From: an uncultured Gemmataceae bacterium
GTDB lineage: Bacteria > Planctomycetota > Planctomycetia > Gemmatales > Gemmataceae
Direction of reading: 5' to 3'
NCBI GenBank assembly: GCA_937923405.1
Contig: CALDUY010000001.1
Span: 1-64,000, forward strand
DNA length: 64,000 nucleotides
Below, one piece after another: positions 28,844-36,252 of the stretch. The translations under genes were made by a program, and so were the position numbers. Each line of letters begins with the position of its first letter. The first letter of the stretch is position 1. Under the pieces are notes generated by a model. The model was not told where the DNA came from, did not search any database, and was given only the letters and a program-made list of their open reading frames with translations.

Positions 28844-29417
28844 GGTCCACCTCCAGCTTCACGAGCCGTTCGTCGAAGACCACCGCGTTGCCGTGTTCCG
28901 CCTCGACGATGTATTCCACGCTGTGCAGCAACACACGCTGATTCCTGCCGGCGTTGCCCACGGGCACCTGCAGACCACCGATGCGAGCCGTCGCTAATTC
29001 GCTCCAGCCATTGCTCAACGGTCGGCCGGTGCCTTCGCCCCACAGGAGATACGTTTGCGACAGCGTCTCGATGACACTTGGCCGGTCCTTCTCTGGCTCC
29101 CAGCCTTCCAGCATTCCTGTTCGGTCCTGCTCGGTCAGAATGACAGCCCGATGACACTGCTCCGGGCTGGGATCGTTCAGCCAGCGGAGTTCGGCTGTGT
29201 CGTCGAAGACGCGGGCCTCGAACACGCTGCCGATATCTTCTATCGGTTGACCGTCCCAGCCTTGCAGTGTTCCGTTGGCAAAGGTCGCCAACTCGAACCG
29301 TCGAGGTGAGTACAGGATGGCCGTTGCACCATTCGCGTCGATGAGGGCGGCGAACGCGGACAGGGCCTCGTTGAGAGCGAGTTTCTGCCGCGTGGAAACG
29401 AAGAGAGCGACACTCAT
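28836..29417 (-). CDS. csx19: Csx19 / TIGR03984-type III-D CRISPR protein
   Basis: 193 residues from ATG 29417, which overlaps the preceding stop as ATGA; longer readings are not needed. Features of the family are ILYSPRRFELATFANGTLQG, FEARVFDDTAELRWLND and the late YLLWGEG...ELATARIGGLQVPV segment. Csx19 is a small subunit specific to type III-D loci with no enzyme motif; a structural role in the effector is likely. Translation is coupled on both sides. Confidence 0.7.
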   Translation of the reverse strand: MSVALFVSTRQKLALNEALSAFAALIDANGATAILYSPRRFELATFANGTLQGWDGQPIEDIGSVFEARVFDDTAELRWLNDPSPEQCHRAVILTEQDRTGMLEGWEPEKDRPSVIETLSQTYLLWGEGTGRPLSNGWSELATARIGGLQVPVGNAGRNQRVLLHSVEYIVEAEHGNAVVFDERLVKLEVDRG

Positions 29418-30952
29418 CCATGCACCCCCTGATTCTGTCGGGTCCAATCTCTCCACACCGACTTCAACGCCTCCGGAAGATTCTGAAGTCTGCCGTGTTC
29501 CAGTCGGAGGTTGCTGAGTGAGACCAGATCACCTTCGAGATCGTGTCCTTGAATCTCTAGCCCCGTTACTTCCACCGTCCCCATGCCACGATGGGTGGCG
29601 AAGCCGAGCGGCAGTCGATCATTGGCCAGGTCGCGGATGACCAGTAGCAGCAAGGCCAGGCCTGGGAGCTGAAGGTCGTTCGGCAACCGCTGCAAGTTTA
29701 CTTCCAGCGTCAGCGGCTCCCACTCGGTGCGATGGGGTTCCGGCACCGTGTACAACATGCTCTCCGCCGCCGACCCAAGCCAGCAGTCGATGGCGACGTG
29801 GTACGCTTGCGACCAGGGTTGAAGGCCCGCTGCGGACAACGCATTTCTCAATTGCTCGTCATTTTCGGCAGCATGGATTGCGGACCATTTCTCGGAGGCC
29901 AACGTTTTTTGCCCGAAACAATCGCGCACACCCAGTGCTCCCAAGCCGGGCAGCCATTCCCGATCGTCGTCCGTCTCCACCCTCTCACCCCGCCGGCCAA
30001 ATAGCTCGTTGATGAGTGGCACATCGACGGCATCGAGGAACTTCTTTTTCCCTTCTGTGCCGAGCCAGTTCGGGCGAACATCCCCCAGGACCGTCCGCAC
30101 GATTCGCTCGGCCTGGCTGCGAAGCGCCCCCTTGACGGAACTACCCGGTAATACCAGTGACACCTGCCCGTCGCAGCCACTGACCAGTGGGAGCATATCC
30201 GAGGCGATGCCGTCGAAGCCCGCCTTGACCATCAATGGCCCGACTGGCTTCCAGTGGATCTTCAACGTGAGCCGAGGCCGCTTCTGAGCGGGATGAGCTT
30301 GTTTGGCGGCTTCGATGCCTGTTTGCGAAACGACAGCCCCATTCGCTTGCCTTAGCGATGCCAGGATGCCTTGGCGTGTGCCAAGGACCTGCTCAGTCAA
30401 CTGCGCTTCCGTCAGCTTGAGATGCCCCAACCCGCAGGTCTTGGCCGCACCGAGGCGAACCTCGCCTGCTTCCAGTGCCTGCTTGAGAACGGCCAGCATT
30501 GCCAGAGCCTGATTCCGCTTCTCTTGCTTCGCCACCTCCACGGTCAATCGCAGCAGCAGCTTTGTACCACGCGGCAAGATGGCTCGGTCGTATTTGATGT
30601 GTTCGGCGGCTGAGCCGTATTCTCGATCGATACCGACGTGATCGCGGATTTCGACAACCACCGTTTCGCTATTCTCGATCACGGCATCCTCGACCACGAC
30701 GAAGGACGCATGGCCGTGATCATCGCGCTGATACCCCCACAGTTCATCAATGACGCTCTCGCCGAAGAGCCGCTCGGCCATTTCTCGCAGCGCTCCGGCC
30801 AGGCTTGTGCCGGGAACGTAGAGTTGCCCAGTGCCATCGCGTGCCAGCGGCAGGTCCGTATCGACCTCCTCACCGTGGCCCCCGACGTGAAGGGGGGACT
30901 GCGTGACCAGGGTTCCGTGAAGATGAAATCGGCTGGTGATGTTACGCGCCAC
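29414..30952 (-). CDS. Tandem Cas7-type RAMP protein (Csm3-like fused pair)
   Basis: 512 residues with two RAMP domains. Domain 1 (~8-185) has EEVDTDLPLARDGTGQ then YVPGTSLAGALREMAERLF, and the loop RLGAAKTCGLGHLKL. Domain 2 (~228-490) has GFDGIASDMLPLVSGCDGQ, LPGSSVKGALRSQAERIV and LGFATHRGMGTVEV. In Csm3 the catalytic Asp sits in a D-x-P-V motif; D33 (DLPLARD) and D252 (DMLPLV) match it, so both domains may cut target RNA. The GTG start overlaps the end of csx10 by 11 bases. Fused Cas7 subunits are a type III-D/E trait. Confidence 0.85.
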   Translation of the reverse strand: MARNITSRFHLHGTLVTQSPLHVGGHGEEVDTDLPLARDGTGQLYVPGTSLAGALREMAERLFGESVIDELWGYQRDDHGHASFVVVEDAVIENSETVVVEIRDHVGIDREYGSAAEHIKYDRAILPRGTKLLLRLTVEVAKQEKRNQALAMLAVLKQALEAGEVRLGAAKTCGLGHLKLTEAQLTEQVLGTRQGILASLRQANGAVVSQTGIEAAKQAHPAQKRPRLTLKIHWKPVGPLMVKAGFDGIASDMLPLVSGCDGQVSLVLPGSSVKGALRSQAERIVRTVLGDVRPNWLGTEGKKKFLDAVDVPLINELFGRRGERVETDDDREWLPGLGALGVRDCFGQKTLASEKWSAIHAAENDEQLRNALSAAGLQPWSQAYHVAIDCWLGSAAESMLYTVPEPHRTEWEPLTLEVNLQRLPNDLQLPGLALLLLVIRDLANDRLPLGFATHRGMGTVEVTGLEIQGHDLEGDLVSLSNLRLEHGRLQNLPEALKSVWRDWTRQNQGVHG

Positions 30953-32507
30953 GGGTCGCCTCCTCTAGTTGTTGCCCCGCCTCCAGTTCTCGCTTGTGGG
31001 CGCGGATGCAGGCATCGAAGAACGTGCGGACGGCCAAGGCCCACAGTTCCCGCTTTAACTCGCTCTGGGCATTAGCCGTGAGCGTGGGCCACGATGAAGG
31101 ATTCAGCTCATTCCAGATCCGTTGCGTGTCGGTAAGGAACTGACGAACCAAGCCGATCGAGCCGTTCGGCCACCGATCTCGTCGGCGAGTATTCGCTTCA
31201 AGATGCGCCAACCAGGCCAGCATCGCGGTAACATCATCTGCCCCACGAAGCCGCGTCAATTGGCCCCTCAAGCCTCCGAGTTGGCTCATCGGCGGTTGGC
31301 CCTGTTCGCCCCTGGCCACCCAACCAAGTGTGTTCTGCCGGCTCTGGGCGGAGTTGGCGAATGCCAGACAGGCCCGGCGGATCTCTTGCTTCCAGCACTC
31401 CCGCTCGATGAGACGGGCAAACGCGAACGCGAGATCACTCGATGCGATGGTCATCGTCGCTGTTGTCTCCGGTTCGCTACTGGCCGGCCTGCCGGGATCC
31501 ACTTGTCCGACAAGCGGTTCGGTAAGCAGCGGATGATGGAATCGCACTTGTCCATAACCCTCGGCGGTTCGTTCGCCGATGCCACTGGCTTCGACTTGGA
31601 CGAGTTTGGCAAGGTCAAGTGTTGCCTCGACGACTTGGAACACCATGCACGAGCCAGCCTGCAAGGCGATCAGCGACGGCCGCGGCAATCCCCAGCCGAC
31701 GTGCCAGGTGTCGAGCCGACGGATGCGAACGAGTTCGTCCAGTTGGCCGTCGGTACTCTCTCGCAGTTTCAGCGTCACACCGAGTCGCTGCGACAACTCT
31801 TCGCCGAGACAAGCCGCCGTCGGTTCGGGCCGCAGACGCGAGTTGCGAAGCAGCGTGTCTGACACCAGCCAAACGAATAGCTCTTTGTCAACATTTCTCG
31901 TGGGGGGCTTCCATTCCACGGCAGGTTCTGCATGGAGAAGAACCGAGCCGTAGTCGTCCTTCTTGGAACGGCCGAGAGCCACTTCGCCTGTGAGTTTATT
32001 CCACCAATTCGCATCGGCCTGAGCGAACCGATCCGCCAGGGACTTGCGAAGGCGCAGCTCACTACGAAGGACGACTGGCTTGCCTTTGTCAGTAGGGGCA
32101 ATGGCCTCGTAGGTGTACACGCCGCCCACGTCACTGGTCGGCCGCTGCGGCTGATCCTCGACCGTGTTGTGGGTCCGCACCGTGATGGGCGTCTTGTACA
32201 GCTTCGTCGGCCGTGTTGAGACATACCCTTCGCGCATCTGCTTCAGCTGTGTACCGTCGGCCGGTTCGGCTTGCCGCAGCCGATTGACCACATGGGCCGG
32301 ATCTTCCAGCCCTTTGCCTCCCTTGGGGGCGAACAGGGCCATCGGCACCGGCTGCCCGCGTTCTCCATCGACTTCCGGGTACGCGGGCAGCACACACGTC
32401 CCCAGCCGGTTCCACACCCTCGGCGGGAATGTTTCCCGAAAGCGTGAATTGTGCGAATCCTCGGTTCGATCGAAGGTGGTGTCGGCGGTCCTGTGCGTCC
32501 GGCCCAT
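30942..32507 (-). CDS. csx10: Csx10 (Cas5-like RAMP protein), N-terminus apparently missing
   Basis: 521 residues from ATG 32507; the frame is open only to a stop at ~32543, so at most 10 more residues could be added. The N-terminal text (MGRTHRTADTTFDRTEDSHN, then ETFPPRVWNRLGTCVLPAYP) joins the protein where family members already have the LY.E.RF..AYP segment; the usual first strand and the PGS.LRGALA-type helix are absent. The rest is typical: KTPITVRTHNTVEDQ...GGVYTYEAIAP, a Csx10 core, and TAEGYGQVRFHHPLL (Gly-rich loop). Csx10 caps the crRNA in III-D. It is the first gene of the operon. Truncation is inferred from family memory and needs alignment. Confidence 0.75.
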   Translation of the reverse strand: MGRTHRTADTTFDRTEDSHNSRFRETFPPRVWNRLGTCVLPAYPEVDGERGQPVPMALFAPKGGKGLEDPAHVVNRLRQAEPADGTQLKQMREGYVSTRPTKLYKTPITVRTHNTVEDQPQRPTSDVGGVYTYEAIAPTDKGKPVVLRSELRLRKSLADRFAQADANWWNKLTGEVALGRSKKDDYGSVLLHAEPAVEWKPPTRNVDKELFVWLVSDTLLRNSRLRPEPTAACLGEELSQRLGVTLKLRESTDGQLDELVRIRRLDTWHVGWGLPRPSLIALQAGSCMVFQVVEATLDLAKLVQVEASGIGERTAEGYGQVRFHHPLLTEPLVGQVDPGRPASSEPETTATMTIASSDLAFAFARLIERECWKQEIRRACLAFANSAQSRQNTLGWVARGEQGQPPMSQLGGLRGQLTRLRGADDVTAMLAWLAHLEANTRRRDRWPNGSIGLVRQFLTDTQRIWNELNPSSWPTLTANAQSELKRELWALAVRTFFDACIRAHKRELEAGQQLEEATRGA

Positions 32508-33346: not shown

Positions 33347-34999
33347 CTATCGCTGGGCGAGGGCGTTGATCTCTGCTTCGCCGAGTGCACGCCGGTAAAG
33401 GCGGACATCGGTTAGCGACCCGTGAAAGTAGTCCCCACTGCCGGCCCCGATCTGGAGCGGCGATTCGTTTACCAAGTCGAACTTGGTTGGATCAAACCGG
33501 CGGGACTCGGCGACCCGCTTTCCATTCAAGTACAGCCGCAGCACGCCGCCTTGCTTCACGGCCGCGACATGTTGCCAGCCGGACGCGAACTCGCGGTCGA
33601 ACGTCACGCACGGCCCCGCTTCAAGCGAGTGGATATGCCCGGACGGAAGCGTGCTACAGAACAGCCGGCCGTCGAACGAAGCCATGGTCCAGGCCCGGCG
33701 GTATTTCACGTTGGGGGTCTGGTCGAGTTGGGCCGTCTTGGTCCACGTCTGCCCGCCATCGAAACGGTACACGGCCCCGAGGGGCAGCGTGCCGCCGTAA
33801 AGTTGGCCGTTGTGGACGAGCATCCCCATGACCTCTTTCTCATCCCCCAACCGGCCGAGGTCGTCCCAGCGGTCGGCAGCGCGGACAAACACCCTACCGC
33901 TCGGCCACGTCCCGACGCACAGCCGACCGCGGTGAACCGCGAACGCATACGTTTGGGTGTCGTCACCGAGCCGGCCAAGGTCTTCCCACTTGTCGCCGTC
34001 ATACCGGTAGACCCGTGCGTCGTCGTAGCTGGTGGCCCACAGAGAGTCGTTGAACACCGCCAGCGATTCGACTCGCTTACCATCGGGCACAACCAGCATG
34101 GTCCACTTGCCGTCGGCTTCGTAGCGGAAGAACCCAGCCGGCTTGTACAAAGAGGAAGCGTACAGACATCCGCGGAACACGGTCATACCGGCGATCGCTT
34201 CGACATCCTTCAACCGGCCCACCTCGGTCCAGCGAGTGCCGCCCTCGTACCGGAATACGCCGCCGCCCGCGTTAGTGTTGTCCGATTCCGGCAGGGACGA
34301 CCCGGCGAACCGATACTTCCCCGTAGCGGCGTACAACTTGCCTTTGTAGGTAACCAGCGACGTGACAGCGTTGCACGTGTCCGGTGCGCCGCAGTCGATC
34401 CATTCGCCGGTCTTGGCGTAGCGGTAGACGCGGCCCGTCTTCCCCGAGGCGTTGTCGGCCGTGCCGGCATACAGCTGGCCGTCGTGGACAGTGAGCGCGA
34501 AGGCCAGAACAGAGGTTCCCGGTCGGCCTTCATCGGTCCAACGCGGTTCGGCCCCCGCGTCGATGCCGAACTGCAACTGACGGACGTTCGCAGTGCCGGT
34601 GGCTCCGGCGTTGGTCCGCAAAGACAGGTTGAACCCGACGCGCTTCGTCTCATCGTACAGAGTGACCAAGTCACCCACGTCGTTCGGCGATTCCCCTGTG
34701 TACACCCAAAGGGTCAACGTGAAGTCGCCGGTGCCGGGGCACAGCCTGGCATCGGGCTTCACACGGAGGTGAGCCTTCCGGCCGTCGAAGGTGGCCGCCG
34801 CGGACTTGCCATCGGGCCCTTTGGCCGAGAACTCGACCCCGTGGTTTCGTGCGTCGAATCGACCGGCGACAGAGTCTTTCGCATCGCCTGCGAGTTTCCA
34901 GTGGGCGACGGGGCCATCGGCATCGCTCGCACGTGTCCACCCCGCTGCGCAAAGCGAGCATCCAACAAGCGCCATAATTGTCCGGATCGAAAACACCAC
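33347..34999 (-). CDS. Secreted LamG/kelch-like beta-propeller protein
   Basis: 550 residues with a signal peptide (MVFSIRTIMALVGCSLCAAG W). A LamG-type lectin fold is split: the first half (~28-135) has VAHWKLAGDAKDSVAGRFDA and FTLTLWVYTGESP; the second half lies at the C-terminus (FASGWQHVAAVKQGGVLRLY, LNGKRVAESRRF, SLTDVRLYRRALGEAEI). Between them are about seven propeller repeats of the form GxLYAGTxxxGRVYRY. Such proteins are exported and bind or process sugars in planctomycetes. A long antisense open frame is an artefact of GC-rich codon use. Intact. Confidence 0.75.
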   Translation of the reverse strand: MVFSIRTIMALVGCSLCAAGWTRASDADGPVAHWKLAGDAKDSVAGRFDARNHGVEFSAKGPDGKSAAATFDGRKAHLRVKPDARLCPGTGDFTLTLWVYTGESPNDVGDLVTLYDETKRVGFNLSLRTNAGATGTANVRQLQFGIDAGAEPRWTDEGRPGTSVLAFALTVHDGQLYAGTADNASGKTGRVYRYAKTGEWIDCGAPDTCNAVTSLVTYKGKLYAATGKYRFAGSSLPESDNTNAGGGVFRYEGGTRWTEVGRLKDVEAIAGMTVFRGCLYASSLYKPAGFFRYEADGKWTMLVVPDGKRVESLAVFNDSLWATSYDDARVYRYDGDKWEDLGRLGDDTQTYAFAVHRGRLCVGTWPSGRVFVRAADRWDDLGRLGDEKEVMGMLVHNGQLYGGTLPLGAVYRFDGGQTWTKTAQLDQTPNVKYRRAWTMASFDGRLFCSTLPSGHIHSLEAGPCVTFDREFASGWQHVAAVKQGGVLRLYLNGKRVAESRRFDPTKFDLVNESPLQIGAGSGDYFHGSLTDVRLYRRALGEAEINALAQR

Positions 35000-35110
35000 A
35001 CGTCTCCTCGATAACTAGCGATGGTTATTGTGCATTCATGCCGCCGGTCGAGTTGCCTCCCTCGAAACCCTCATCGGACGCTATCAGGCCGGATTTGCCC
35101 AGTGTATTTA

Positions 35111-35260
35111 CTATAAAGACGCTCTGAAAAGAGGTTTTTAATCAAGACTACCACTAAGCCTATTCTCGCTCTCGATCGGGGCAACTACAAGAGGGTTGAC
35201 GGTTTTTACGACCGCTCCAGTCAACCGCCGTCTCTGCGAAGACGAAGTGCGTGAGTCCCT
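35111..35260. repeat. Dispersed repeat, copy A
   Basis: Contains a 52-base core (35161-35212) that is identical to 36076-36127, with further similarity on both sides (TATAAAGAC.CTCTG before; TCTCTGCGAAGACGAA after). No open frame. It lies on one side of the DUF29 gene, copy B on the other, in the same orientation. Could be a mobile repeat or a structured RNA. Confidence 0.8.
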
Positions 35261-35408
35261 CAAGCCTGCCTGGCAGGCCACCCGCCAGAGAAGTTCACGA
35301 GAAACGGTCGATCCGTTGGGCTACATCAAACACATCAGCTGCAAAAAGCATGTTCAGAGAGTGGTTTTCTCTGGATAGGGGATTCCTTCAACGGGTTCAG
35401 CGTCTTGG

Positions 35409-35867
35409 TCAGATGTCGTCGGACAAGATGTTTGGAGACAGCAACTGCTCAAGCGTGTACGGGCAGACCATCGGGAAGTTCTCCGGCGGCAACCCGGTCT
35501 CGGCGGCGATCCGTTCGACAGCCTTCAGGTAGGCGTCCGGGAGAACCGCCTCGGCGTGGTTCCGCAGCACTCCTCGGCTGGCCAGCCCCTCCAACTCCTG
35601 CCGCTGTTCGACAACCGTCGCTCGCCAACTCCCCGATCGGCGGTCGGGTTGGTGAAACCACTTCAGCACATGCGCTAGCAGGACGATTAGACGGCTCTCG
35701 ACCTCCCGACGATCGCGGCGTGCCATGTCCGACAGGTACTCCGCCAGGCAGTTTGGATCGATCTCACACACTCGCCCGTGGCGGACGAGCTCGGCGGCGG
35801 CTTCCAGCCACGCGGTCTCATCTGCCTGGTACAAAGCCGCGTTCGCCAGCGGGGTTCGCTGCACCAT
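35409..35867 (-). CDS. DUF29 family protein
   Basis: 152 residues from ATG 35867. The family pattern is clear: LYQADETAWLEAAAELVRHG, LAEYLSDMARRDRREVESRL, IVLLAHVLKWFHQPDRRSGS W and the C-terminal LPPENFPMVCPYTLEQLL. DUF29 proteins are all-helical, of unknown function, and spread widely in cyanobacteria and planctomycetes, often near mobile DNA. The gene sits alone between two direct copies of a ~150-bp repeat (35111 and 36025). Confidence 0.85.
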   Translation of the reverse strand: MVQRTPLANAALYQADETAWLEAAAELVRHGRVCEIDPNCLAEYLSDMARRDRREVESRLIVLLAHVLKWFHQPDRRSGSWRATVVEQRQELEGLASRGVLRNHAEAVLPDAYLKAVERIAAETGLPPENFPMVCPYTLEQLLSPNILSDDI

Positions 35868-36024
35868 CGAGCCACTCCTCACCAGCCCCGACGAACCGGT
35901 CTAGGCTAGACTCACACAATACCGGAATCTGGGCAAACACGCTACCAATTGCGCCAACCTTTGCTCACCGAACAAATCCCTGCAAGCCGTGAGTGCGATA
36001 AATGGTAGGAGACTCAGCACATCT

Positions 36025-36170
36025 CCGATAAAGACACTCTGCAAAAGGGCTTGTCGCTAGGACTGCCGCTGGTACTATTCTCGCTCTCGATCGGGGCAAC
36101 TACAAGAGGGTTGACGGTTTTTACGACTCCTTTCGACCAACCGCCATCTCTGCGAAGACGAACTGCGAGA
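36025..36170. repeat. Dispersed repeat, copy B
   Basis: Second copy of the element at 35111-35260, same orientation, ~915 bases away. The core 36076-36127 is identical over 52 bases; outer parts differ by substitutions and small indels. It lies upstream of the promoter of the lipoprotein gene, so it could be part of a leader or regulatory region. Confidence 0.8.
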
Positions 36171-36252
36171 GACCGATAAGGGGTTGGGTGTTGGTCGCCA
36201 CGAGCGACCCAAGCCTGCCTGTCCTGCTGCGTAACTGCTAAAGTCTTTACCC

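What the first reader, a model, noticed from the sequence alone, without database searches (positions are those of the whole stretch)
35111..36170. Two direct copies of a ~150-bp element around DUF29
52 identical bases (35161-35212 and 36076-36127) plus similar flanks, same orientation, no coding potential. They may be ends of a mobile unit carrying DUF29, or two copies of a structured RNA. One lies just before a promoter.
Basis: seen in the sequence. Interest (0 to 1): 0.52.

Follow-up and report, generated by a model that had tools for sequence, protein, structure and literature searches.

The report
Relics of a gene-flanking IS110 element
Two repeated stretches on either side of a small bacterial gene are the worn ends of a jumping element that lost its transposase gene; in related bacteria the same ends sit between small accessory genes in rows whose genes differ from strain to strain.

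Summary
The repeat is real: 35113-35258 and 36028-36174 are 81% identical, with a 53-base identical run. Each copy is the left end (LE) of an IS110-family insertion sequence plus a fossil of the first transposase codons (ILALDRGNYKRVDGFYD); copy 1 also keeps a right end (RE, 35293-35401). The genome has four LE copies; no related intact transposase was found. In the same family (Gemmataceae) LE occurs in 28 of 95 genomes. In one relative, transposase-less LE-RE units of about 555 bp are 95% identical at three sites, so they moved recently. LE tips lie against the Shine-Dalgarno site of an antisense gene (25 of 56, against 3% of random positions), in intact IS110 copies too. All 15 neighbouring LE pairs under 2.3 kb are in direct orientation, with genes between, and three orthologous loci carry different genes between the same flanks. 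DUF29 has this geometry: RE tip 7 bases past its stop, LE tip about 99 bases before its start. Best reading: decayed IS110-derived mini-elements that turn the genes between them into exchangeable cassettes. The enzyme that moves them is inferred, not shown.

The parts
35106..35215 (+). Copy 1, left end (LE) remnant; LE tip lost or diverged
   Evidence: Homology to copy 2, L003 and L004; LE profile hit 35143-35202, E 2.4e-9 (copy 1 is in the training set)
35162..35212 (+). Copy 1, fossil of transposase codons ILALDRGNYKRVDGFYD
   Evidence: Reading frame; Gemmataceae IS110 loci have ILAIDLGKYKSVxC here
35262..35292 (+). Junction between LE and RE: palindrome AAGCCTGCCTGGCAGGC (35262-35278) and CCAGA (35285-35289), where copy L003 is split
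   Evidence: L003 LE homology ends and its RE homology begins within these 5 bases
35293..35401 (+). Copy 1, right end (RE); tip GGGTTCAGC at 35393-35401
   Evidence: RE profile E 4.2e-16 (copy 1 is in the training set); independent DNA match to a relative at G033:C5:103670-103713
35409..35867 (-). DUF29 gene between the copies, antisense to them
   Evidence: Pfam DUF29 E 2.5e-36; stop codon 35409-35411, 7 bases from the RE tip; ATG 35865-35867 with GAGGAG before it
35966..36174 (+). Copy 2, LE with tip CACCGAACAAATCCCTGCAAGCCG; no RE detected
   Evidence: LE profile 35967-36117, E 3.5e-17 (copy 2 is in the training set); match to L003 and L004
36077..36127 (+). Copy 2, fossil transposase codons, identical to copy 1
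35982..36054 (+). Possible helix P1 of the LE: GCAAGCC 35982-35988 with GGCTTGT 36048-36054
   Evidence: Helix counted on 37 LE sequences
33347..34999 (-). Gene left of copy 1 (Laminin_G_3 domain), antisense to the copies, start facing the copy 1 LE

Best explanation
The two repeats are decayed, transposase-less copies of an IS110-family element: LE plus about 17 transposase codons, with RE kept in copy 1. Shown: the homology; that such LE-RE units moved recently in a relative; that LE tips lie against Shine-Dalgarno sites of antisense genes; that neighbouring copies are in direct orientation with genes between them; and that gene content between the copies differs at orthologous sites. Inferred: units spread by an IS110 recombinase acting in trans, with its bridge RNA choosing sites beside Shine-Dalgarno sequences. 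Where two units flank a gene, recombination between the direct repeats (homologous, or by the recombinase) excises or swaps that gene, so DUF29 here sits in a cassette-like slot. In this genome the copies are old and probably no longer jump.
For: LE homology to loci that bear PF01548-positive IS110 transposases. LE in 28 of 95 family genomes and 17 of 39 genera; G033 has 30 copies, G103 11, own 4. L082/L083/L084 share a ~555-bp LE-to-RE unit at ~95% with different flanks. Shine-Dalgarno core in the first 14 nt at the LE tip: 25 of 56 against 3.0% of 20,000 random positions; 7 of the 14 IS110 loci with a longer transposase have it too. 15 of 15 LE pairs under 2.3 kb are direct. Three orthologous G033/G103 loci hold different genes between the same flanks; in L101/L102 identity stops exactly at the RE tip. 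The same gene+LE unit lies in different places (L078 and L089, 78%). Copies 1 and 2 share a 53-base identical tract while L003 and L004 differ from that core at 13 and 12 of 52, which suggests local exchange between the two repeats.
Against: No intact helper of this subfamily was found in the own genome (PF01548: one hit, on a 3-kb contig, of another type), nor any PF01548 hit in G033. Own LE tips do not abut a Shine-Dalgarno site (0 of 3). The RE of the main mini-element type was not matched to an intact IS110. Copy 2 has no detectable RE and copy 1 lacks its LE tip. The tests that RE-LE intervals hold one antisense gene are weak: 23 of 26 against 68% at random, and 14 of 26 on the sense strand. 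No empty site of a cassette was seen: in G072 the two flanks of the L095 locus lie 3 Mb apart.
Confidence: 0.68

Rival explanations
1. Plain IS110 mini-elements inserted one by one between genes of accessory operons and decayed; DUF29 is simply the gene between two insertions and does not move with them.
For: Intact IS110 copies of the subfamily show the same antisense placement at Shine-Dalgarno sites, which alone explains orientation relative to genes; own copies are old and diverged.
Against: Clustering: 12 neighbouring pairs under 2.1 kb among 30 G033 copies, where uniform placement predicts about 0.3 (my arithmetic). Orthologous sites with different genes between the same flanks. Many arrays start with an RE that has no LE before it.
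Confidence: 0.22
2. A dedicated integron-like cassette system: the unit is RE-gene-LE, and an IS110-type recombinase joins circles at LE-RE sites. (A stronger form of the best explanation.)
For: RE-gene-LE order with no LE before the first RE at 11 loci of G033/G103 (L083, L084, L090, L052, L094, L095, L098, L099, L100, L104, L105) and at own L019; L003 split within CCAGA; boundary at the RE tip in L101/L102.
Against: Outer breakpoints vary between copies in G033/G103; the 555-bp LE-RE unit moved as a whole; no recombinase tied to it; integron integrase not searched for.
Confidence: 0.25
3. Two copies of a conserved functional RNA or leader element.
For: Helix P1 in LE: 82.4% of 245 cells paired, U-A in 23 and A-U in 8 sequences at one pair, covariation score reached by 1 of 500 shuffles. 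A G033 copy (L082 LE) folds at z -2.9.
Against: The seven window or own stretches tested have z between -1.05 and +1.55; no Rfam match; no pairs from RNAalifold; related rows inflate covariation counts; the pair of columns 23 and 93 fails in 19 sequences.
Confidence: 0.08
4. Ordinary composite transposon LE1...RE2 carrying DUF29.
For: Two direct copies flank a gene.
Against: Copy 2 has no RE and copy 1 no LE tip, so the outer ends needed are missing; the facing ends are RE and LE.
Confidence: 0.05

Closest known systems
IS110 family insertion sequences with bridge RNA (PMC11208160, passages read)
   Same: LE sequence, transposase N-terminus and short inverted tips; strong site preference; in that paper most IS110-group members carry a predicted bridge RNA in LE and IS1111-group members in RE
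   Different: No transposase in these copies; placement beside Shine-Dalgarno sites; the words 'non-autonomous' and 'Shine' do not occur in that paper's main text
Bacterial MITEs (review PMC10969869, passages read)
   Same: Short, non-coding, intergenic, derived from IS ends, sometimes in clusters
   Different: That review does not mention IS110; these carry a fossil of the transposase start and lie between genes in direct arrays
TIME-COMPs, Tn3-derived miniature elements flanking a passenger gene (PMC13367494, abstract and outline read)
   Same: Two miniature elements in direct orientation bracket a gene
   Different: Tn3 ends, mostly on plasmids; here IS110 ends facing inward, in chromosomal arrays
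Integron gene cassettes with attC (recalled, no call)
   Same: Compact genes separated by recombination-site-like spacers; content varies at a fixed site
   Different: Spacers are IS110 ends of about 200-560 bp, not attC; no integrase identified; order RE-gene-LE with the gene antisense

Membership tests
IS110 family insertion sequence | DEDD transposase (PF01548) encoded in the element | tested here: not met
   Only ~17 fossil codons in the window copies; no PF01548 element of this type found in the genome
IS110 family insertion sequence | Ends homologous to an autonomous IS110 | tested here: met
   LE aligned with loci that bear PF01548-positive genes; RE not tied to an intact IS110
IS110 family insertion sequence | Circular intermediate and bridge RNA | not testable with these tools
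   Needs cells
MITE / non-autonomous IS110 derivative | Short element without transposase, bounded by IS ends | tested here: met
   Copy 1 and L004 have LE and RE and no transposase; copy 1 lacks its LE tip
MITE / non-autonomous IS110 derivative | Several near-identical copies with different flanks | tested here: met
   In G033 only: L082/L083/L084 at ~95%; own copies 77-84%
MITE / non-autonomous IS110 derivative | Mobilised in trans by a matching transposase | not testable with these tools
   No helper found in own genome or G033
Integron cassette array | Integron integrase and attI nearby | not tested
   Not searched
Integron cassette array | Gene content varies between the same flanks, genes bounded by the site | tested here: met
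   L094/L095, L096/L097, L101/L102
Integron cassette array | attC sites between the genes | tested here: inconclusive
   Spacers are homologous to IS110 ends; no attC model was run
Known structured RNA (Rfam) | Match to a curated family | tested here: not met
   0 matches in the window at gathering scores

The most novel reading that the evidence does not exclude
Gemmataceae have an RNA-guided gene-cassette system: IS110-type ends, aimed by their bridge RNA at Shine-Dalgarno sites (the LE carries CGGAGG, the transposase's own ribosome-binding site, complementary to the CCTCCG at the target), bracket single genes from start to stop and let them be collected and exchanged in chromosomal arrays: a parallel to integrons built from a different recombinase.
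Probability: 0.25. Interest if true: 0.85.

Novelty: new variant of a known kind. Interest (0 to 1): 0.52.

Why it matters
Transposase-less IS110 elements that sit at translation starts and bracket single genes would give chromosomes a cassette-like way to exchange small genes without an integron. How gene cassettes arise is an old question for integrons (recalled); an IS110 system with young copies in one genome would make a version of it testable. It also predicts an RNA-guided target, the Shine-Dalgarno region, for one IS110 subfamily. The window itself holds only worn relics.

Tried and rejected
Structured RNA as the main reading: folds, Rfam and RNAalifold gave no support for the window copies. 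Close DUF29 relatives in genome contigs: none found, so DUF29 conservation next to the repeats could not be followed. A plain search of 59 relatives with the 157-bp copy 1 gave only three weak short matches; the transposase reading opened the way. Integron attC reading: the tips GCCGAAC/GTTCGGC look a little like core sites, but the spacers are IS110 ends. ORF coverage of RE-LE intervals was dropped as proof after its control. The RE-tip/stop test (25 of 25 against 34%) is biased because the RE probably carries stops in several antisense frames. No empty site was found in G104 or G072. Literature: searches listed no paper that by title or abstract start treats IS110-derived MITEs or Shine-Dalgarno-targeting IS110; only open PMC papers are held, and 5 papers were opened.

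Full report
OBSERVATION. The repeat is there as described. 35113-35258 and 36028-36174 match at 81% over 147 columns, same strand, and 35161-35212 equals 36076-36127. The longest identical run is 53 of 147 columns; shuffled columns reach this in a fraction 2e-5 of 100,000 trials. A search of the own genome gave four strong places: the two in the window, C13:80599-80717 (81%, L003) and C27:116371-116427 (77%, L004), and five weaker short ones. L003 and L004 differ from the 52-base core at 13 and 12 positions. So the perfect core is special to copies 1 and 2, which suggests sequence exchange between them rather than family-wide constraint.

WHAT IT IS. In one frame the copies read ILALDRGNYKRVDGFYD or a worn form of it. 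I recalled that IS110 transposases of this kind begin ILA(I)DLGKYKSV. A query built on that found matches in 9 of 61 family genomes. In those loci the bases before ILAIDLGKYK carry the same GAATCCATGCAAGCCG-type block as the window's AATCCCTGCAAGCCG. LE profile hits lie beside PF01548-positive or IS110-like genes (L128, L135, L123, L124). The repeats are therefore LE plus transposase start. Downstream of copy 1, 35293-35401 matches segments in L003 and L004 and, at its end, G033:C5:103670-103713 (82%), about 190 bp after an LE match there. This segment ends GGGTTCAGC; RE tips elsewhere end GGGTTCGGC. I call it RE.

RELATIVES. The family is Gemmataceae by record titles (a contig of G033 has the length of a JALHPZ01 Gemmataceae contig, and G072 that of the Limnoglobus roseus chromosome). 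The planctomycete domains PSD1, PSCyt1, PSCyt2 and DUF1501 occur in the window. With an LE profile (R1, 37 sequences, own copies included), 28 of 95 family genomes and 17 of 39 genera have LE at E <= 1e-4: G033 30 copies, G103 11, own 4 (strict filters, so lower bounds). In G033, L082, L083 and L084 share a ~555-bp unit from LE tip to RE tip at about 95% with different flanks, without a transposase: recent movement of a non-autonomous element.

PLACEMENT. Read in the sense of the neighbouring gene, the flank that starts at the LE tip begins GGCGGAGGGCG...ATG. A Shine-Dalgarno core lies in its first 14 nt in 25 of 56 LE places, and core plus start codon within 35 nt in 34 of 56, against 3.0% and 5.3% of 20,000 random positions in the same loci. 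By group (core; core plus start): own 0 and 0 of 3, mini-elements 12 and 17 of 30, IS110 loci with longer transposase 7 and 10 of 14, pattern hits 6 and 7 of 9. One search examined 57 places; one (L111, the same record as an earlier locus) was dropped, and copy 1, whose tip is lost, was in neither. So antisense placement at translation starts looks like a target preference of the IS110 subfamily itself; own copies do not show the tight contact.

ARRAYS. Neighbouring LE copies less than 2.3 kb apart number 15 (12 in G033, 1 each in G103, G102 and the own genome), and all 15 are in direct orientation. Uniform placement of 30 copies in 6.4 Mb predicts about 0.3 such pairs (my arithmetic). Genes lie between: HNH, DUF433, a methyltransferase, a DUF4279-like protein, and many with no Pfam match. 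RE tips lie near a stop of an antisense ORF in 25 of 25 against 34% of random positions, but the RE itself probably carries stops in several frames, so this is biased. In several loci the ORF reads into the RE and ends ..EPG*. One antisense ORF fills at least 75% of 23 of 26 RE-LE intervals against 68% at random and 14 of 26 on the other strand: weak.

CHANGE BETWEEN STRAINS. Three loci can be compared between G033 and G103, with flanks about 88-96% identical. L094/L095: 9.6 kb with two LE copies against 0.9 kb with one; the gene+LE unit of L095 is found in G033 on another contig (L078/L100, 78%). L096/L097: four LE copies in 3.7 kb against one in 0.5 kb with another gene. L101/L102: identity runs through the RE and stops at its tip, with different genes beyond. 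The flanks of L082 and L084 have no match in G103 at E <= 1e-20. No empty site was seen in G104 or G072.

THE WINDOW. DUF29 (35409-35867, minus; Pfam E 2.5e-36) ends 7 bases from the RE tip of copy 1 and starts about 99 bases from the LE tip of copy 2. Own L019 has the same order RE-gene-LE with a methyltransferase ORF that matches only the C-terminal half of its Pfam model. L003's LE homology stops and its RE homology starts within the same CCAGA that joins LE and RE in copy 1, as if a circle had opened there; this is one case, and outer breakpoints vary in G033/G103.

MECHANISM. Shown: identity of the ends, recent mobility of the unit in G033, placement, direct arrays, different content at orthologous sites. 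Inferred: trans-mobilisation by an IS110 recombinase, an RNA guide aimed at Shine-Dalgarno sites, and recombination between direct copies as the way genes come and go. Against: no helper found in the own genome or G033, decayed copies, no empty site, and REs of this type not yet tied to an intact IS110.

RNA. Helix P1 (GCAAGCC/GGCTTGC, in others GCATGCC/GGCATGC) is paired in 82.4% of 245 cells with 9 two-sided changes; 0 and 1 of 500 shuffles reach the paired share and the covariation score, but rows are related, further pair types are not above shuffles (490 of 500 reach them) and one pair fails in 19 sequences. RNAalifold gave no pairs. The seven window and own stretches fold at z -1.05 to +1.55; L082's LE folds at z -2.9. 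A remnant of a bridge RNA is possible, not shown.

Noticed in passing
window 29414-32507, minus strand: Two adjacent genes: a RAMP-superfamily protein (Pfam E 2.6e-31) and a 521-aa neighbour without a Pfam match. Possibly part of a type III CRISPR or RAMP locus; the tandem-repeat scan shows no array in the window.
   Followed up: partly
G072:C1 (Limnoglobus roseus), e.g. 3851070/3853106, 4001039/4003075, 4251132/4253170, 6429910/6431946, 6489300/6491336: Five pairs of a 367-aa IS110-type transposase in opposite orientation, about 2,036-2,038 bp apart each time, as if a fixed two-transposase unit had spread.
   Followed up: no
G000:C46 (L013): A 3-kb contig of the own assembly bears an intact IS110-type transposase of another subtype (VGIDLAKNVFEVAVAD); perhaps a contaminant.
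   Followed up: no
LE of L023-L041 and copies in G033/G103, e.g. L084:1278-1413: The LE holds CGGAGG (ribosome-binding site of the transposase), complementary to the CCTCCG found at its target flank: a candidate guide.
   Followed up: no
L082, L083, L084, L096, L099 between LE and RE: GC-rich imperfect palindromes of about 80-100 nt (e.g. CGGCGAACGGCGCGACGTCAG...) recur in G033 and G103 inside and outside the mini-elements.
   Followed up: partly
G000:C17:1111-1167 (L021): A further RE fragment near a contig start, 88% to 35272-35328, without LE.
   Followed up: partly
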